The notes below the pieces were generated by a model. That model searched no databases, was not told the origin of the DNA, and saw only the letters and a list, made by a program, of their open reading frames with translations. Made by a program: the position numbers and the translations under genes. 38,760 bases of DNA from Nitrososphaerales archaeon (GTDB lineage: Archaea > Thermoproteota > Nitrososphaeria > Nitrososphaerales > JACPRH01), in NCBI GenBank assembly GCA_030745655.1, contig JASLOE010000002.1, positions 1 to 38,760 on the forward strand. The letters are read 5' to 3'. This document shows, piece by piece, positions 14,648-22,523 of the stretch; the first letter of the stretch is position 1, and each line of letters opens with the position of its first letter.

Positions 14648-15511
14648 ATGATCTGCTTGGGAATAATTTATGATCGCTTACGTTGGGAGGAGAAAGAATT
14701 GTCGAAATCAGCGGATGCTAGAGGACTTGATGTTAATCGGGTAGACGCAAAAACTATTAGTTTGGATTCAGATTGGAGTTCAACTGATACCCAAGATAAG
14801 TTTGGAAATATCGTCCTCCAAAGATGTATTAGCTATTTCAGGGGTCTTCATACTACAGCTTTTCTTGAAAGTAAAGGGCTAAAGGTGATTAATTCAATGG
14901 ATGTAGCATTAACATGTGGAAACAAGCTTCTTACAACCTTGAAACTTGAGAAAGCTAATGTTCCTACACCTAGAACTTTGTTTTCATTTACTGCAGAAGG
15001 AGCTATTGAATCTCTTCAGACTATTGGGTACCCTGCCGTTCTTAAGCCTGTGACTGGAAGTTGGGGTAGAATGGTAGTTAAATTGAACGATAAAGAAACG
15101 GCTCAAGCTATGATCGAAATGCGTTCTAAGATTGAAGGTCCATTGAACCAGATATTCTACATTCAGGAGATGGTTGATAGGCCCCCAAGGGATATACGAA
15201 CAATTGTTGCTGGTGATAAAATTGTTGCATCTATTTATCGACATGCATCTCCAGGTGAATGGCGCACGAACGTATCTATTGGAGGTAAAGGTGATATTTG
15301 CAAAGTGACTAGTGAACTGGAAGATGTAGTTTTAAGGGCCGCTGATACTGTTGGCGGAGGGTTACTTGGTGTAGATGCTATGGAATCAGAAAATGGAATA
15401 TTGATACACGAGATTAATAATACCGTTGAATTCAAAGGCGCAGCATCTGTATGTGGTGTGGATATTGCCAATGAAATCATATCATACATATTAGCTCAGA
15501 ATCGAAGGTGA
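14648..15511 (+). CDS. argX: LysW-glutamate ligase ArgX-like (ATP-grasp)
   Basis: A 287-residue RimK/LysX-type ATP-grasp ligase that joins LysW's C-terminal Glu to an amino acid. The ATP-grasp body includes YPAVLKPVTGSWGRMV, the RPPRDIRTIVAGDKIVA segment, and the Mg-binding ...HEINNTVEFKG. The FKGAASVCG stretch after the conserved NNTVEF differs from the FRNTV..TGVDIP of the second ligase. In the family, the FxN/TGVDIP form is LysX-like. Together with its place beside argGH and argC this points to glutamate, hence arginine synthesis. Specificity is inferred. Confidence 0.85.
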   Translation: MICLGIIYDRLRWEEKELSKSADARGLDVNRVDAKTISLDSDWSSTDTQDKFGNIVLQRCISYFRGLHTTAFLESKGLKVINSMDVALTCGNKLLTTLKLEKANVPTPRTLFSFTAEGAIESLQTIGYPAVLKPVTGSWGRMVVKLNDKETAQAMIEMRSKIEGPLNQIFYIQEMVDRPPRDIRTIVAGDKIVASIYRHASPGEWRTNVSIGGKGDICKVTSELEDVVLRAADTVGGGLLGVDAMESENGILIHEINNTVEFKGAASVCGVDIANEIISYILAQNRR

Positions 15512-15517
15512 TATTAA

Positions 15518-16570
15518 TTGAGAATAGGTGTTATTGGTGCATCTGGGTTTGTTGGAGGAGAGCTCCTAAGGTTACTTACACTTCACCCTGAGGTAGAAGT
15601 CACTTCTGCAACATCTAGAAAATATTCAGGTAAATATATCTACAGAGTCCACGCAAACCTGAGAAACCTGACAGACCTACAATTCACAGACCAGAATCTC
15701 GAAAAAATTATTGATTCCTCAGATCTCATTTTTACTGCCGTACCACACGGTACAGCAGTTGATATTATGCCAAGGCTTGTTGAATCAGATATTAAGATAG
15801 TGGATATGAGTGCAGATTTCAGACTAAAAAAACCCGATAGTTATCCTATGTGGTATAATTATTCACATCCCCACTCTGGTTTGTTGAAAAAATTTCTATA
15901 TGGTCTTCCAGAGATACGGAGGAACAAATTGAAAGGTGCGCGCTTAGTCTCCTGTCCCGGATGTATGGCGTTAACCACAATACTATCTCTTTCACCACTT
16001 CTAAAAGGAAACATAATTGATCAAAAACGGATTATAGTAGATGCTAAGATCGGTTCATCAGGAGCAGGAGTAGCTTCATCCAGGGCTACCAATCATGCTG
16101 AGCGATACGGAGTGATTAGACCATACAAACCTGTTGGGCATAGGCACACAGCCGAGGTGGAACAAGAGTTGAGCAATATCGCGGGATCTGAAGTATCTAT
16201 CTTAATGTCAACGCATGGAGTAAATATTGTCCGTGGGATTCTATGCACTTCGCAATTATTCTTGAAGAAGCCTCTATCTATATCTGATATCTGGAAGTTA
16301 TATCGTGAAGCATATCATGGAGAACCGTTTATTAGATTGGTTAAGGACCATCAGGGAATTTATAGGTTTCCAGATCCAAAAGTTGTTATCGGATCAAACT
16401 ATTGTGATATAGGTTTTGAACTAGATGACCGGAATGATAGGATAGTGATAATGGCTGCAACGGACAATCTTGTAAAGGGAGCTGCTGGAACTGGAGTGCA
16501 ATGTATGAACTTGATGCTAGGATTTGAGGAGACAACCGGTCTGGACGCTGCTCCTATTCATCCAGTGTGA
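15518..16570 (+). CDS. argC/lysY: LysW-gamma-glutamyl/aminoadipyl phosphate reductase
   Basis: A 350-residue NADPH-dependent reductase. GASGFVGGELLRLL (residues 8-20) is the nucleotide-binding motif, and VSCPGCM carries the probable catalytic Cys149. HRHTAEVEQEL carries the catalytic His region. It reduces the LysW-bound acyl phosphate to the semialdehyde. Only one copy is in the window, so it probably serves both arginine and lysine synthesis, as LysY does in Sulfolobus. The start is TTG after aaggtgat. Confidence 0.92.
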   Translation: MRIGVIGASGFVGGELLRLLTLHPEVEVTSATSRKYSGKYIYRVHANLRNLTDLQFTDQNLEKIIDSSDLIFTAVPHGTAVDIMPRLVESDIKIVDMSADFRLKKPDSYPMWYNYSHPHSGLLKKFLYGLPEIRRNKLKGARLVSCPGCMALTTILSLSPLLKGNIIDQKRIIVDAKIGSSGAGVASSRATNHAERYGVIRPYKPVGHRHTAEVEQELSNIAGSEVSILMSTHGVNIVRGILCTSQLFLKKPLSISDIWKLYREAYHGEPFIRLVKDHQGIYRFPDPKVVIGSNYCDIGFELDDRNDRIVIMAATDNLVKGAAGTGVQCMNLMLGFEETTGLDAAPIHPV

Positions 16571-16576
16571 TACTCT

Positions 16577-17383
16577 ATGGTAGTTGTTGTTAAAGTTGGA
16601 GGTAGCATACTTGGTGATGGAGTAGATGCATCTATGCTTGATGATATTCTTAAGATTGCTTCTAGTGAGAAGCTCATACTGGTTCATGGAGGTGGTAAGG
16701 AGGTTACGGATTTTGCCGACAAATTAGGTAAAAAACAGAGATTTATTGTTTCTCCTGGAGGTAGTCGAAGTAGATTTACAGATTTGGAGACTGTTAAAAT
16801 TTTCACTATGGTTATGGCTGGAGTGATTAACAAAGAGATTGTGTCTGCGCTACAAAAGAAAGGTTTGGCAGCAATTGGACTCTCAGGTCTTGATGGTGGT
16901 TTGATCAAAGCGGATAGAAAAAAGAAACTCATCATTATCGATGAGCGAAAAAGAAAAAGGGTGATCGAAGGTGGATATACTGGAAAGATATCTGAAGTAA
17001 ATGGTAATCTCCTTAAAATTCTGCTTAATGAAGGCTATTTGCCCGTTATATCGCCAGTAGCTATTGGTAAAGACTTCGAATATCTTAATGTGGATGGTGA
17101 TAGGGCTGCAGCATATGTAGCTGGAGAAGTGAAAGCAAATAGCGTAATCTTCCTTACCGATGTTAATGGAGTCTATATGAACGATAAACTAATTGAAAAG
17201 ATGTCCTTAAGTGAAGCAGAATCTTTGCGTTCTAAGATAGGGTTCGGCATGGAAAAGAAAGTGTTAGCTTCAACTGAAGCCCTATCAATGGGGGTAAAAG
17301 AGAGTATGATCGCATCCGGTCTTACAACAAATCCACTCACTTCTGCCCTTGAGCACAGGGGATGCACAGTGATAATCAAATGA
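16577..17383 (+). CDS. argB/lysZ: LysW-glutamate/aminoadipate kinase
   Basis: A 268-residue amino-acid kinase with KVGGS (residues 6-10), LVHGGGKEV, the substrate-loop SPGGSRSRFTD typical of LysZ rather than free N-acetylglutamate kinases, and LTDVNGVY. It phosphorylates the side-chain carboxyl of the LysW-bound amino acid. It lies 6 bp after argC/lysY and overlaps argD/lysJ by an ATGA. It is a single copy, so probably bifunctional. Confidence 0.93.
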   Translation: MVVVVKVGGSILGDGVDASMLDDILKIASSEKLILVHGGGKEVTDFADKLGKKQRFIVSPGGSRSRFTDLETVKIFTMVMAGVINKEIVSALQKKGLAAIGLSGLDGGLIKADRKKKLIIIDERKRKRVIEGGYTGKISEVNGNLLKILLNEGYLPVISPVAIGKDFEYLNVDGDRAAAYVAGEVKANSVIFLTDVNGVYMNDKLIEKMSLSEAESLRSKIGFGMEKKVLASTEALSMGVKESMIASGLTTNPLTSALEHRGCTVIIK

Positions 17384-18591
17384 ATGACAATGAAATAATC
17401 AATCTTGAAAACAAGTATCTTGCAAGTACATACTCTAAAATTCCTTTTGTTGTGACCAAGGGAAATGGTTCAACATTATGGGATACTAATGGTGAGGAAT
17501 ACATTGATTGTGCAAGTGGATATGGTGTTGCTCTGGTTGGACATTGTAATCCTAAGGTAACTGAAGCTATCAAAATTCAATCTGAAAAATTATTGACATG
17601 TCACTGTTCCATGTACAATGAGACTCGAGCAAATCTCTTAAACAAGCTTTTAAGAATCGCGCCTAATTCGATGAACAGAGCATTCCTCTGCAGCAGTGGG
17701 GCTGAATCTGTTGATGCGGCAATAAAAATTGCTCGAAAAAACACTCGAAGACCTGGAATAATTGCTATGACAGGTAGTTATCATGGGAAAACTATTGGTG
17801 CTCTTTCCACTACTTGGAATAAGCGTTACAGAGAACCATTTGAACCATTACTTCCAGAAGTAACATTTGCATCTTTTGGGGATTCAGAACAGATCAGAGA
17901 AAAAGTGTCTAATAAGACTGCAGCAATACTTGTTGAACCAGTTCAGGGTGAGACTGGAATAAAACCTGCACCTGATGGCTTTCTTAAAGAAATTCGGGAA
18001 ATTTGTGATGAAAATGGATCACTCTTAATATTTGATGAGATTCAAACGGGTTTTGGTAGAACAGGTAGAATGTGGGCATCTGAACATTGGGGTGTGGATC
18101 CAGATGTGATGTGTATATCTAAATCTATAGCAGGTGGTCTTCCTATGGGAGCTACCTTAGCTAGAGATGATGTTATGCAGTCTATGATGATTGGGGATCA
18201 TAGTACTACATTTGGTGGAAATCCTCTATCTTGTGCAGCCGCTATTGCTGTAATAGATTATATTCTTAATGAGGACCTTGTTAAACGTGCAGAATCAATT
18301 GGTAATATATTTAAAAATGGATTAGATAAATTAACCAAAAAATACAAAATTGCTAGAGAAGCAAGAGGATTAGGGCTGATGTTAGCTTTAGAAATGAGAT
18401 TTGATGTTAGAAATATACTTCGCAATGCTCTAAAAGAAAGGGTCGTTTTATTAAATTCAGGGCGGACTATTCTACGATTTCTTCCACCATTAGTTATATC
18501 TGAGCAAGAAATCAAACAGGTCCTGAATGTTTTAAATGAATTACTAGAAAAGGAAGAAGCTTCCAAATTCGAGAATAATAGTTCGAAATAA
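17380..18591 (+). CDS. argD/lysJ: LysW-ornithine/lysine aminotransferase
   Basis: About 403 residues from the ATG at 17380 (ATGA overlap with lysZ); an ATG 18 bp upstream is possible. It is a class III PLP aminotransferase. FDEIQTGFGRTG carries the PLP-binding Asp (about 219), and ISKSIAGGLP carries the Schiff-base Lys (about 248). It transaminates LysW-bound glutamate semialdehyde or aminoadipate semialdehyde with glutamate as donor. A non-coding 77-bp stretch follows before the regulator gene. Confidence 0.93.
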   Translation: MNDNEIINLENKYLASTYSKIPFVVTKGNGSTLWDTNGEEYIDCASGYGVALVGHCNPKVTEAIKIQSEKLLTCHCSMYNETRANLLNKLLRIAPNSMNRAFLCSSGAESVDAAIKIARKNTRRPGIIAMTGSYHGKTIGALSTTWNKRYREPFEPLLPEVTFASFGDSEQIREKVSNKTAAILVEPVQGETGIKPAPDGFLKEIREICDENGSLLIFDEIQTGFGRTGRMWASEHWGVDPDVMCISKSIAGGLPMGATLARDDVMQSMMIGDHSTTFGGNPLSCAAAIAVIDYILNEDLVKRAESIGNIFKNGLDKLTKKYKIAREARGLGLMLALEMRFDVRNILRNALKERVVLLNSGRTILRFLPPLVISEQEIKQVLNVLNELLEKEEASKFENNSSK

Positions 18592-18631
18592 TACTAAAAT
18601 ATTATTAAAATATATGTAATAGAAAACATAT

Positions 18632-18649
18632 TTAACGTTTAACGATACT
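18632..18649. promoter_or_regulatory. Double TTAACG half-site in the promoter of the Lrp gene
   Basis: TTAACG at 18632-18637 and again at 18639-18644, the second within TTTAACGATACT (18638-18649). The site lies about 20-35 bp before the ATG at 18669, downstream of a TATA-like aatatatgt (about 18608-18617), so it should cover the transcription start. The nine bases TTAACGATA recur in the inverted repeat in front of homocitrate synthase. Autoregulation by the Lrp-like protein is an inference. Confidence 0.4.
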
Positions 18650-18668: not shown

Positions 18669-19091
18669 ATGACGGATATAGATGCTATGGATAGGAAGAT
18701 ACTTTCTCTACTTGAAGAAAATTCTAGACGATCTTTTGTTGATATTGCTAATGTGGTAAGCTTATCTGAACCTGCAGTTCGACGACGAATAAAGAATCTT
18801 GTAGATCGTGGTGCAATCAGCCGTTTTACGGTTGAAACTGACGTTGACAAGGGTGCTTCAGCAATTACATTGTTATCGATAAATCCATCTATACCCACTC
18901 CGGAAATATCTAATAAATTACTAACGATGACAGGTGTAAATGTTTTTTTTTAATTAAATGTTAATTTTTATATTGATTTTTTTTTTTCTGTTTAAAATAT
19001 CGCAACTATAAACAAATGTATTGACGATATACGTCAAATAGATGGGGTAGGTAATACTAACACCGTCATAATATTGAAGACATTGCGTTAA
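18669..19091 (+). pseudogene. Lrp/AsnC-family regulator (LysM-like), interrupted by two in-frame stops
   Basis: The first 94 codons encode a normal Lrp/AsnC helix-turn-helix (MDRKILSLLEENSRRSFVDIANVVSLSEPAVRRRIKNL) and the start of the ligand-binding RAM domain. TAA occurs at 18951-18953, but the same frame continues to 19091. Its end, CIDDIRQIDGVGNTNTVIILKTLR on residues 117-140, is a typical Lrp C-terminus. A second TAA is at 18993-18995. The full frame is exactly 140 codons, the usual family length, with no net frameshift. Between the stops the codons are almost pure A/T and the conserved TGxYD-like motif is not readable. Position between lysJ and homocitrate synthase matches LysM, the lysine regulator of Sulfolobus. 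Expression of the 94-residue DNA-binding fragment is possible. Confidence 0.78.
19021..19037. promoter_or_regulatory. 17-bp inverted repeat TTGACG-N5-CGTCAA
   Basis: TTGACGATATACGTCAA has perfect 6-bp arms around a 5-bp A/T spacer. It is inside the C-terminal part of the broken Lrp gene. It has the same architecture as the repeat at 19095-19111, and the centres are 74 bp apart. It might be an upstream operator for homocitrate synthase; coding constraint could also produce it. Confidence 0.4.
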
Positions 19092-19094
19092 TAA

Positions 19095-19111
19095 TTAACG
19101 ATAAACGTTAA
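19095..19111. promoter_or_regulatory. 17-bp inverted repeat TTAACG-N5-CGTTAA, likely operator of lysS
   Basis: TTAACGATAAACGTTAA has perfect 6-bp arms with a 5-bp A/T spacer. It lies 40 bp before the ATG of homocitrate synthase and overlaps a TATA-like TAAATACT (about 19109-19116). Binding there would block TBP/TFB. Lrp-family proteins bind short imperfect palindromes of about this size, so regulation of the lysine genes by an Lrp-type protein is plausible. Confidence 0.5.
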
Positions 19112-19150: not shown

Positions 19151-20359
19151 ATGGAAAACGATACACCAAATCCAAATGCTCACGCATACGAATACAATGA
19201 GTCTGAAAATATTCTGCCGCCATCTGTAATGATATTGGATACTACTTTGAGAGAGGGTGAACAAGCTCCTGGAGTATCCTTCACTTTGCGTCAGAGACTT
19301 CAGATAGCTTGGATTCTAGATTATTTTGGTGTAAACTTTATAGAAATTAGTCCAATAGTTTCTGAAAATCATGAAGAATCTTGTAAAGCGATGCTAAAGG
19401 CAGGTCTTAGTGCTGAGATTGTTGCCCATCTTCGTGCCCTTCCAAAGGACATAGATGTAGCTCTACGCTGTAATGCTTCATGGATAGCTATGTATCATTC
19501 CGTATCAGATATCCACTTAAAATATAAACTAAGGATATCGCGGGAAGACGCTATAACAAGAGCTGTAGATGCTGTCGAATATGCTAAGAGTCACGGATTA
19601 AAGATGAGATTTACTTTAGAAGATGCAACCAGAGCTGACCCTAAATTTCTTGAAGAGATGTGTATTGCAGTTACAAATGCAGGAGCAGATAGAATAAGCT
19701 TACCTGACACTCTTGGCATAATGTCGCCCCGTGGAATGCATAATCTTGTAAAAATAATTCATGGAAAAGTAGATACTCCCATTGATATGCATTGTCATAA
19801 TGATATGGGATTAGCTTTAGCCAATTCTCTGGCTGGCCTAGAAGCAGGTTCAACCATGGTTCACACAAGCATCGATGGATTGGGTGAAAGGACAGGTCTT
19901 GTTCCATTGGCCGAAGTTGCAATGGCACTTAAAATGATATACAGGATGGATCTTAATGTTAGAATGGAAATGCTGAAAGAGCTTTCAGAACTTATTACAA
20001 ATTATACATCCACAAAGACTCCGGCATCAAAACCCTTAGTTGGTGAAAACGCCTATAAACATAAGGCTGGAACACACATAGCAGCCATTATTCGAAATCC
20101 AGCTGCTTATGAGTTCGTTCCTCCAAAGATTGTGGGTAACCAAAGAAGTGTAATTATTGGTGAATTAGCTGGAAGAACAGAAGCTGCGTTTCTAATGAAT
20201 CTCTTAGGATTAACTCCCAACTCAGAGGACGCCTTAAAATTGACAAAGGGATTAAAGAACCTTCGGACAGGTGACCTTTTTGAACTTAAATTATCTGAGG
20301 AAATGGAGGAAAAAATGATTGACGTTGAAAACAATATCAATAGGCAGCGTCTAAAGTAA
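19151..20359 (+). CDS. lysS: Homocitrate synthase
   Basis: A 402-residue enzyme of the DRE-TIM family: DTTLREGEQAPGVSF (residues 30-44) with the metal-binding Asp, DMHCHNDMGLA with the metal-binding histidines, and HKAGTHIAAIIRNPAAYEF near residue 305. The last is typical of homocitrate synthases of the alpha-aminoadipate lysine pathway rather than isopropylmalate synthases. It condenses acetyl-CoA and 2-oxoglutarate. Length suggests no long C-terminal regulatory domain. The first 20 residues are a polar extension. Position before lysW-lysX supports the lysine role. The other early enzymes (homoaconitase, homoisocitrate dehydrogenase) are not in the window. Confidence 0.88.
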   Translation: MENDTPNPNAHAYEYNESENILPPSVMILDTTLREGEQAPGVSFTLRQRLQIAWILDYFGVNFIEISPIVSENHEESCKAMLKAGLSAEIVAHLRALPKDIDVALRCNASWIAMYHSVSDIHLKYKLRISREDAITRAVDAVEYAKSHGLKMRFTLEDATRADPKFLEEMCIAVTNAGADRISLPDTLGIMSPRGMHNLVKIIHGKVDTPIDMHCHNDMGLALANSLAGLEAGSTMVHTSIDGLGERTGLVPLAEVAMALKMIYRMDLNVRMEMLKELSELITNYTSTKTPASKPLVGENAYKHKAGTHIAAIIRNPAAYEFVPPKIVGNQRSVIIGELAGRTEAAFLMNLLGLTPNSEDALKLTKGLKNLRTGDLFELKLSEEMEEKMIDVENNINRQRLK

Positions 20360-20382
20360 AGGTGTTTCAAGGAGGTGAAATC

Positions 20383-20550
20383 TTGAAGTGTTTAGAATGT
20401 GAAGGAGAAATTCCTATACCTGAGGATGTAATTAAAGGTGAAATTGTGACATGTCCTGACTGTGGAGTATCATTCGAGGTACACAAGATATCTAAAGATT
20501 CTTTTGAGTTGAGACCTGCTCAGGTAGAAGGAGAAGACTGGGGTGAATAA
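20383..20550 (+). CDS. lysW: LysW amino-group carrier protein, copy 2 (lysine side)
   Basis: 55 residues from a TTG at 20383, which has GGAGGTGA (20371-20378) five bases upstream; an upstream GTG would add seven residues across the Shine-Dalgarno. Zinc-ribbon cysteines CLEC and CPDC, acidic body, and C-terminal GEDWGE whose last Glu is the attachment point. It carries alpha-aminoadipate made from homocitrate. It lies directly before lysX and clearly differs from copy 1 (for example PIPEDVIKGEIVT versus KVPDDVVVGEIIT). Confidence 0.93.
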   Translation: MKCLECEGEIPIPEDVIKGEIVTCPDCGVSFEVHKISKDSFELRPAQVEGEDWGE

Positions 20551-20555
20551 TTGAA

Positions 20556-21401
20556 TTGAAAATATCAATGCTATATGATGTAGTACGTACAGAAGAGAAG
20601 ATGCTTGCAAAAGCTGCTGATAGGAAAAATATAGATCTTAATATGATATGTTCAAAAGATTTATACTTAGATTTACATAAAGACTATCAAGAAAAATTTG
20701 GTGATATAGTTCTCCAGAGATGTGTAAGTTACTTCAGGAGTATTCACATTACAGCATTTCTTGAATCTAAAGGTGTAAAAGTAGTGAATGGACTCCACGA
20801 AGCATTTACAGCTGGAAACAAACTGAACTCAACATTAAAAATGGTAAATGCAGGTATACCTGTTCCAAAAACATATTTAGCTTTCACTCAAGAAAGTTCA
20901 TTAAAAGCACTAGAAGAACTTGGTTATCCTGCTGTCTTGAAGCCTACGATGGGAAGCTGGGGAAGATTAATTGCACTGATGAATGATTCTGAAAGTGCAG
21001 AGTCGATACTAGAAGACCGTGAGCATATGTTTCCCATATACCAAAATTACTATATTCAGGAGAAAGTGAAAAGACCGCCACGTGATATTCGCGCATTTGT
21101 CATAGGTGATAAAGTTGTGGCAGCTATTTATCGTATATCCGCAGAAGGTGTTTGGAAAACTAATACTGCCCGAGGGGGTAAAGCAGAGAACTATCCTGTA
21201 ACAAATGAGTTAGAAGACCTATGTCTGAGGGCCGCTACTGCCATGGGTGAAGGCTTATTCGGAGTAGATTTAATGGAATCACCAGATGGACTATTAGTTC
21301 ACGAAGTGAACAACACAATCGAATTTAGAAACACTGTACCTATAACAGGCGTTGACATACCAAGTCTGATGCTAGACTACCTCATTGACCTAAAACACTG
21401 A
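20556..21401 (+). CDS. lysX: LysW-alpha-aminoadipate ligase LysX-like (ATP-grasp)
   Basis: A 281-residue ATP-grasp ligase paralogous to the gene at 14648. YPAVLKPTMGSWGRLI and RPPRDIRAFVIGDKVVA match it, while the substrate region reads NNTIEFRNTVPITGVDIPS, the form I associate with LysX. It ligates alpha-aminoadipate to LysW. The start is TTG (20556) following gggtgaat; it lies 5 bp after lysW copy 2. Specificity is inferred from neighbours and this motif. Confidence 0.87.
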   Translation: MKISMLYDVVRTEEKMLAKAADRKNIDLNMICSKDLYLDLHKDYQEKFGDIVLQRCVSYFRSIHITAFLESKGVKVVNGLHEAFTAGNKLNSTLKMVNAGIPVPKTYLAFTQESSLKALEELGYPAVLKPTMGSWGRLIALMNDSESAESILEDREHMFPIYQNYYIQEKVKRPPRDIRAFVIGDKVVAAIYRISAEGVWKTNTARGGKAENYPVTNELEDLCLRAATAMGEGLFGVDLMESPDGLLVHEVNNTIEFRNTVPITGVDIPSLMLDYLIDLKH

Positions 21402-21404
21402 CAG

Positions 21405-22523
21405 ATGATAGACATGCAAAATGAAAATGCGATAAATTTATTGACAGAAATGCTTGGGATTTATACTCCATCACTTCAGGAAGCACCACTCTCAGAATAT
21501 CTTGCGAAGAGAATGAAGAATGAATTGGGTTATGATAATGTAAGAATAGATGAAGCCAATAATGTAATTGGCGAAATAGGTTCAGGAACTCCCATAATAT
21601 TACTCAGTGGACATATGGATACTGTTCCAGGACAACAGCCTGTAAAAATCATCAAAGAAACAATACACGGAAGAGGTGCTTGTGACGCAAAATCTTCACT
21701 TGCAGCCATGTTGATTGCGGGGTCTGATCTAAAAAATGAATCCAATATTGGGAAAGTCGTCGTTGCTGCAGTAAGTGATGAAGAAGGTAACGGACTTGGA
21801 ACAAGAACACTCATTGATAGTGGTGTAACTGCAGATTACGCCATTTTCGGAGAGCCAAGTGGTATTGATAATGTAACAATAGGTTACAAAGGCCGACTTG
21901 GTTTTACCATAACTTGTGGTGCTCCAAGTTTACACGCAAGTGCACCTTGGGTAGCTGAGAATGCAATAGAAAGTATTTACGAGGTTTGGGATGCAATAAA
22001 GAGTTTTACTCTAGAAAATACTGGGTCTAATCGATATTCTTCTGTAACGGCAAGTCTTACTGGGATTCATGGAGGATCTTCACATAATACAACTCCTGAA
22101 AAATGTAAAGCTACGGTTGATATGCGAATACCTCCTCAAAAATCAGCGGATTGGATAGCAAAAGAAGTTGAAAAGATTGTTCATAAGTTTCAATCTGATA
22201 CAAATTTCTCAAAGGTTAAGTTAAAAGTAGATGATGTAACAGAACCCTTCGAAACAGACAAAAAATCCATATTGGTACGTGCAATAATTAGGGGTGTATT
22301 GCAAGTGAGGAAAAAACGACCTTTACTCTTAAGAAAAACTGGAACTGGAGATATGAATCTTCTAGGACACCAACTTGGTATTCCCGTGGTAACCTATGGT
22401 CCCGGTGACCCACATCTTTCACATACTCGAAATGAATTCATAGAAATAGATGAATATCTCTCTAGCATAGACGTTTACAAAGCCACAGCCATGAATTTAG
22501 CTAAAATACATAACTATTCTTAA
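21405..22523 (+). CDS. lysK/argE: LysW-lysine/ornithine hydrolase (M20 family)
   Basis: A 372-residue zinc peptidase-like enzyme that frees lysine or ornithine from LysW. Metal ligands are visible in LSGHMDTVPG (His70, Asp72), GACDAKSS (Asp94) and SDEEGNG (Glu126/Glu127), with a dimerisation domain around residues 170-290. It is the only such gene here, so it probably acts in both pathways. The ATG at 21405 is 3 bp after the lysX stop; an ATG at 21414 is an alternative. It ends the amino-acid block. Confidence 0.9.
   Translation: MIDMQNENAINLLTEMLGIYTPSLQEAPLSEYLAKRMKNELGYDNVRIDEANNVIGEIGSGTPIILLSGHMDTVPGQQPVKIIKETIHGRGACDAKSSLAAMLIAGSDLKNESNIGKVVVAAVSDEEGNGLGTRTLIDSGVTADYAIFGEPSGIDNVTIGYKGRLGFTITCGAPSLHASAPWVAENAIESIYEVWDAIKSFTLENTGSNRYSSVTASLTGIHGGSSHNTTPEKCKATVDMRIPPQKSADWIAKEVEKIVHKFQSDTNFSKVKLKVDDVTEPFETDKKSILVRAIIRGVLQVRKKRPLLLRKTGTGDMNLLGHQLGIPVVTYGPGDPHLSHTRNEFIEIDEYLSSIDVYKATAMNLAKIHNYS

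What the first reader, a model, noticed from the sequence alone, without database searches (positions are those of the whole stretch)
18669..19091. Lrp-type lysine/arginine regulator broken by two in-frame TAA codons without frameshift
Codons 1-94 and about 96-140 are in the same frame and together make a full-length Lrp/AsnC protein of 140 codons. The middle (18945-18995) has two TAA codons and reads FF-stop-LNVNFYIDFFFSV-stop in a nearly pure A/T block, where the conserved TGxYD-type motif should be. Both ends are intact, including the HTH and the C-terminal strand. So the damage is recent, local, or an error. A 94-residue product would keep DNA binding but lose effector sensing, which could give unregulated repression.
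Basis: partly seen in the sequence, partly recalled or inferred. Interest (0 to 1): 0.6.

Follow-up and report, generated by a model that had tools for sequence, protein, structure and literature searches.

The report
Sequencing-error block in archaeal lysine regulator
A lysine-biosynthesis regulator gene in a thaumarchaeal genome looks broken by two stop codons, but the damage is a 54-base patch of T/A-biased substitutions with the fingerprint of bad sequencing signal, so the gene is most likely intact in the living organism.

Summary
Window 18669-19091 is one 140-codon Lrp/AsnC frame with TAA at 18951-18953 and 18993-18995 and no frameshift. It is the LysM-type regulator of a LysW-dependent lysine/arginine cluster, and all 42 homologues collected are open through this point. 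The interpretation (a truncated regulator causing unregulated repression) is not supported. The damaged block, about 18942-18996, is the gene's own sequence in register: 32 of 55 bases match the nearest complete relative, against at most 23 at any shifted register. It carries 23 differences from that relative, no indel and no gained G or C. Changes are G>T, C>A and A>T, with 1 transition, whereas transitions outnumber transversions in the flanks (Fisher 3e-6). At positions invariant in three relatives, T never changes, G becomes T, C becomes A, A becomes T. Published Illumina error modes (G/T and A/C channel cross-talk, T accumulation) predict this; no mutation process known to me does. Both halves of the gene look selected, and an operator-like palindrome beside it is conserved in relatives with an intact regulator. 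Best reading: a local sequencing or assembly artefact in an ordinary lysM gene (0.87). The predicted operator, TAACG-W5-CGTTA, is the most useful by-product.

The parts
18669..19091 (+). LysM-type Lrp/AsnC regulator gene, 140 codons, with two in-frame TAA codons as deposited
   Evidence: Translation. NCBIfam NF040947 LysM is the best family for the N-terminal part (96.7 bits) and for the intact relative L004 (178.3 bits, cut-off 180). 42 homologues align and are open through the block.
18669..18941 (+). intact N-terminal part: winged HTH, linker, first strand and helix of the RAM domain
   Evidence: Pfam PF13404, E 3.7e-17. 62/91 residues identical to L004, dN 0.21 and dS 1.49.
18942..18996 (+). 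corrupted block over the conserved VYEITGQYDIAVIVSGS segment; substitutions only, T/A-biased
   Evidence: Composition. Register test 32/55 at offset 0 against at most 23 elsewhere. 22 transversions and 1 transition against L004.
18951..18953 (+). first in-frame TAA
18993..18995 (+). second in-frame TAA
18997..19091 (+). intact C-terminal part of the RAM domain and natural stop
   Evidence: 25-26 of 31 residues identical to the family relatives, dN 0.08-0.11 and dS 1.16-1.46. Pfam PF01037, E 3.5e-4.
18631..18647 (.). operator-like imperfect palindrome TTTAACGTTTAACGATA, 21 bases between it and the ATG of the regulator gene
19096..19110 (.). operator-like palindrome TAACGATAAACGTTA between the regulator gene and the homocitrate synthase-family gene; conserved at this place in relatives
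17362..18591 (+). context: LysJ/ArgD-type aminotransferase
   Evidence: NCBIfam TIGR00707 above cut-off, LysJ models next
19151..20359 (+). context: homocitrate/isopropylmalate synthase family enzyme
   Evidence: NCBIfam PRK00915.1-2, LEU1_arch and LysS_fung_arch, all below their cut-offs
14648..17383 (+). context: LysX, ArgC/LysY and [LysW]-aminoadipate/glutamate kinase genes
20362..22523 (+). context: LysW carrier, second LysX, [LysW]-lysine hydrolase family

Best explanation
The gene is an ordinary LysM-type regulator that is intact in the organism. In this assembly about 54 bases were overwritten by wrong base calls (substitutions only), which created two false TAA codons. Shown: the block is the native sequence in correct register and length; the changes are almost all transversions towards T and A with the pattern G>T, C>A, A>T and T unchanged; flanks on both sides keep the pattern of a conserved coding sequence. 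Inferred: the wrong calls come from degraded Illumina-type signal (G/T and A/C cross-talk, T accumulation, phasing) in a thinly covered spot, kept by the assembler or by gap filling. The working gene would be read as a dimeric or multimeric, probably lysine-responsive regulator acting on the palindromes at 18631-18647 and 19096-19110, next to its own gene and the homocitrate synthase-family gene.
For: All 42 homologues collected are open through the block. Block identity to L004 is 32/55 in register against 11-23 at 30 shifted registers, and averaged over 42 homologues 25.3 against at most 18.7. Changes against L004: G>T 11, A>T 6, C>A 4, T>A 1, G>A 1, no gain of G or C; flanks 55 transitions and 44 transversions, Fisher p 3e-6. 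At positions invariant in three relatives: T>T 14/14; G kept 4, to T 8, to A 1; A kept 6, to T 5; C kept 1, to A 4, to T 0. Published Illumina errors: cross-talk between A and C and between G and T (PMC3426806); G called T from about cycle 25, then A and C called T, through T accumulation (PMC2745764). Both flanks of the gene are conserved. The operator-like site is conserved. The other recognised genes of the window read as single open frames.
Against: Reads, coverage and the sequencing platform are not available here, so the artefact is inferred from its fingerprint. T accumulation was described for early Genome Analyzer chemistry, which may not be the platform used. No same-species or same-genus copy could be compared: the genus-mate G001 is 61% complete and no orthologue was found. 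The nearest relatives with the gene are only 66-73% identical in the flanking DNA, so some of the 23 differences are natural divergence. Against the two higher-GC relatives the transversion excess is weaker (L003 p 0.017, L005 p 0.13), because C>T differences add transitions. No second block of this kind turned up in 369 kb of the same assembly, so this is a single event.
Confidence: 0.87

Rival explanations
1. A real and very recent pseudogene: the lineage lost its LysM regulator through a local clustered mutation event.
For: The stops are in the deposited sequence. The genome is small and may be reduced (902,772 bases), and regulators are often lost in such genomes (general knowledge).
Against: It would need about 20 substitutions in 54 bases with no indel, almost no transitions, only towards A/T, and nothing comparable in the adjoining 365 bases. 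Ordinary decay gives transitions, indels and spread-out damage. The C-terminal part is still conserved and the operator-like sites remain.
Confidence: 0.09
2. One reading: a stable 94-residue HTH protein is made and acts as an effector-blind repressor.
For: The HTH domain is complete before the first stop.
Against: It needs the stops to be real. Archaeal Lrp proteins bind DNA as dimers formed by RAM-domain strands (PMC2995911), and a stop at codon 95 removes the C-terminal strand. LysM of Sulfolobus is described as an activator (same source).
Confidence: 0.02
3. Translational recoding: TAA is read through or redefined, giving a full-length variant protein.
For: Frame and length are kept across both stops.
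Against: Even with the stops read as sense, the block encodes FF?LNVNFYIDFFFSV? and not the conserved E-[IVT]-[TA]-G-x-[YF]-D motif of the archaeal homologues. TAA also terminates this gene and the gene before it, and no other recognised gene of the window has internal stops.
Confidence: 0.01
4. A foreign T-rich segment replaced the block (template switch, gene conversion or targeted diversification).
For: The edges are fairly sharp and the composition is unusual.
Against: The block matches the gene's own homologues in register. The 25-base core 18952-18976 occurs nowhere else in the genome even at 3 mismatches. Adenine-directed retroelement diversification would change A only, whereas G and C change here too.
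Confidence: 0.01

Closest known systems
LysM, lysine-responsive Lrp/AsnC regulator of archaeal LysW-type lysine biosynthesis (Sulfolobus solfataricus LysM; NCBIfam NF040947)
   Same: Same family by profile, same length in relatives, encoded inside a lysW/lysX/lysJ cluster
   Different: As deposited the frame carries two stops. The intact relative L004 scores 178.3 bits, just under the curated cut-off of 180. In this clade the predicted operator lies before the homocitrate synthase-family gene and, in this genome, before the regulator gene itself; the main local target in Sulfolobus is lysWXJK (PMC4046817).
Pyrococcus LrpA (PDB 1i1g) and FL11/PH1519 (PDB 2cyy, 1ri7, 2e1c)
   Same: Solved homologues covering the whole chain; FL11 binds a 13-bp palindrome as a dimer (PMC2995911)
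   Different: Only distantly similar (E about 1e-14 to 1e-16)
Illumina Genome Analyzer late-cycle base-calling errors (cross-talk, T accumulation; PMC3426806, PMC2745764)
   Same: Substitutions without indels; G called T; A/C confusion; A called T
   Different: The platform of this assembly is unknown, and the published description includes C called T, which is not seen at the invariant positions here

Membership tests
LysM-type Lrp/AsnC regulator | AsnC-type winged HTH at the N-terminus | tested here: met
   PF13404, E 3.7e-17
LysM-type Lrp/AsnC regulator | Complete RAM (AsnC_trans_reg) domain | tested here: not met
   As deposited the middle of the domain is unreadable and only the last 31 residues match. 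The 42 homologues are open through it. So the deposited frame is not a complete member; the membership claim is made for the gene as inferred in the organism.
LysM-type Lrp/AsnC regulator | NCBIfam LysM equivalog score above cut-off (180 bits) | tested here: inconclusive
   The fragment scores 96.7 bits; the intact relative L004 scores 178.3, just below; the next family is at 63.3
LysM-type Lrp/AsnC regulator | Location in a LysW-dependent lysine/arginine biosynthesis cluster | tested here: met
   LysX, kinase, reductase, aminotransferase, LysW and hydrolase families on both sides
LysM-type Lrp/AsnC regulator | Binding to a palindromic 13-17 bp operator with AT-rich centre | tested here: inconclusive
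   15-bp palindromes of this type flank the gene and are conserved in relatives; binding itself not tested
LysM-type Lrp/AsnC regulator | Lysine as effector | not testable with these tools
   needs a binding assay
Pseudogene by ordinary decay | Spread-out damage, transitions and indels, relaxed constraint | tested here: not met
   Damage confined to about 54 bases, transversions only but for one, no indel, constraint visible on both sides
Sequencing/assembly artefact | Substitution spectrum follows optical channel confusion | tested here: met
   G>T 8, C>A 4, A>T 5, T unchanged 14/14 at positions invariant in relatives
Sequencing/assembly artefact | Low coverage or low base quality at the site | not testable with these tools
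   reads not available

The most novel reading that the evidence does not exclude
The block is real DNA: a single localised event produced about 20 transversions towards T/A in 54 bases without any indel and inactivated the lysine regulator. That would be an undescribed kind of clustered mutagenesis in an archaeon.
Probability: 0.05. Interest if true: 0.55.

Novelty: not a real feature. Interest (0 to 1): 0.14.

Why it matters
It shows how to tell a false pseudogene in an assembled environmental genome from a true one: correct register, no indels, and a substitution spectrum that follows sequencing chemistry. It prevents a wrong claim of regulator loss. The conserved palindrome between lysM and the homocitrate synthase-family gene is a testable predicted operator in a thaumarchaeal clade.

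Tried and rejected
A codon-usage scan for other broken genes was dominated by antisense shadows and did not recover the known case, so it is not used. In the T-rich scan, two further stretches in L046 were looked at: one overlaps the end of an intact 404-aa gene and the space beyond it, the other lies in the first codons of an intact 1510-aa gene; neither breaks a gene. A second intact copy of the regulator in the genome was not found; the next matches are distant Lrp paralogues at 62 bits or less. A copied donor segment was not found. Inverted-repeat or quasi-palindrome templating of the block: only weak, distant pairs. The genus-mate G001 has only distant relatives of the homocitrate synthase-family gene and no regulator orthologue. 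The search for archaeal AmoA was uninformative because nothing rang in the controls. The DNA alignment included one locus in the wrong orientation (L005) and is not used for counts.

Full report
What is there. The frame 18669-19091 (+) is 140 codons of an Lrp/AsnC protein with TAA at codons 95 and 109, and the same frame runs through to a natural TAA at 19089-19091. The gene lies inside a LysW-type lysine/arginine biosynthesis cluster: LysX, reductase, kinase and LysJ/ArgD before it; a homocitrate/isopropylmalate synthase-family gene, LysW, a second LysX and a [LysW]-lysine hydrolase-family gene after it. The best specific family is LysM, NF040947. The genome is a 902,772-base, 65-contig assembly, 88.75% complete. 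Its relatives in the same family and order include records titled Thaumarchaeota, Nitrososphaerales and Nitrososphaeraceae.

Homologues. Forty-two homologues from whole genomes and public contigs have one open frame through this region. The ungapped segment V-Y-E-I-T-G-[QE]-Y-D-I lies where the window reads FF-stop-LNVNFYIDFFFSV-stop. The same number of codons is present. The closest relatives with the gene, L003/L032, L004 and L005, are 66-68% identical in the N-terminal part and 25-26 of 31 residues identical after the block.

Nature of the block. Between 18944 and 18996 there are 36 T, 13 A, 3 G and 1 C. No 52-base stretch in 369 kb of this genome is as T-rich. The block is not foreign. Against L004 it is 32/55 identical in register, while 30 shifted registers give 11 to 23; the mean over 42 homologues is 25.3 in register and at most 18.7 otherwise. 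Twenty thousand shuffles of its letters never reached the observed identity.

Spectrum. Against L004 the block differs by G>T 11, A>T 6, C>A 4, T>A 1 and G>A 1. Flanks differ by 55 transitions and 44 transversions (Fisher p 3e-6). Against the two higher-GC relatives the excess of transversions is weaker (p 0.017 and 0.13) because C>T differences add transitions. The cleanest view uses positions identical in all three relatives: T kept 14 of 14; G kept 4, to T 8, to A 1; C kept 1, to A 4, to T 0; A kept 6, to T 5. In the flanks the same kind of position is kept 213 times and changed 50 times, with 28 transitions. No G or C is gained in the block against these relatives.

Interpretation. On Illumina Genome Analyzer data, cross-talk links A with C and G with T (PMC3426806). 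From about cycle 25 G is called T, and later A and C are called T too, because the T dye accumulates (PMC2745764). Such errors are substitutions without indels. The block has this fingerprint. Whether this particular platform was used is not known, so the exact route (poor read ends in thin coverage, or gap filling) is inference. Ordinary pseudogene decay predicts indels, transitions and spread-out damage, which are not seen.

Selection. Between the window and L004, dN is 0.21 and dS 1.49 before the block, 0.08 and 1.16 after it. These are pairwise values, so they show long-term constraint, not constraint on this lineage alone.

Operator. Two palindromes, 18631-18647 and 19096-19110, form an inverted pair, 89% complementary over 19 bases, around the gene. 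With the pattern TAACGWTWAACGWTA at up to one mismatch they are the only sites in the genome. With the symmetrical pattern TAACG-W5-CGTTA, 7 of 61 genomes have a site, 8 sites in all. Six of these lie within about 10 bases after the regulator gene: G000, G002, G003, G004, G009 and G023. The other two are elsewhere (G024 C4 and G000 C64). In G002 and G004 the next gene is the homocitrate synthase-family gene, as here; in G009 and G023 the next gene found is a LysX-like gene. The site fits the 13-17 bp imperfect inverted repeat with AT-rich centre known for archaeal Lrp dimers (PMC2995911). Its upkeep beside the gene argues that the regulator works. Binding by this regulator is a prediction.

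Function of a truncated product. If the stops were real, the product would lack most of the second half of the RAM domain. Archaeal Lrp dimers are held by RAM-domain strands, and the dimer is the minimal DNA-binding unit (PMC2995911). A simple loss of function is then likelier than unregulated repression.

Verdict. Observation confirmed. Most likely a local sequencing/assembly artefact in an ordinary lysM gene (0.87); a real recent lesion is possible (about 0.1).

Noticed in passing
window 18631-18647 and 19096-19110; L077, L078, L079, L080, L081 at 1501-1515: A 15-bp palindrome (TAACG-W5-CGTTA) sits directly after the LysM-type gene in six genomes of two families, before a homocitrate synthase-family or LysX-like gene; a likely operator of this regulator. 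This genome has a second copy upstream of the regulator gene.
   Followed up: partly
window 14648-15511 and 20556-21401: Two LysX-type ligase genes in one cluster (both above the TIGR02144 cut-off), presumably one for the lysine and one for the arginine branch of LysW-carried synthesis.
   Followed up: no
window 149-38697: Apart from the regulator gene, the recognised genes of the window are densely packed, uninterrupted open frames, which makes the single broken gene stand out.
   Followed up: partly
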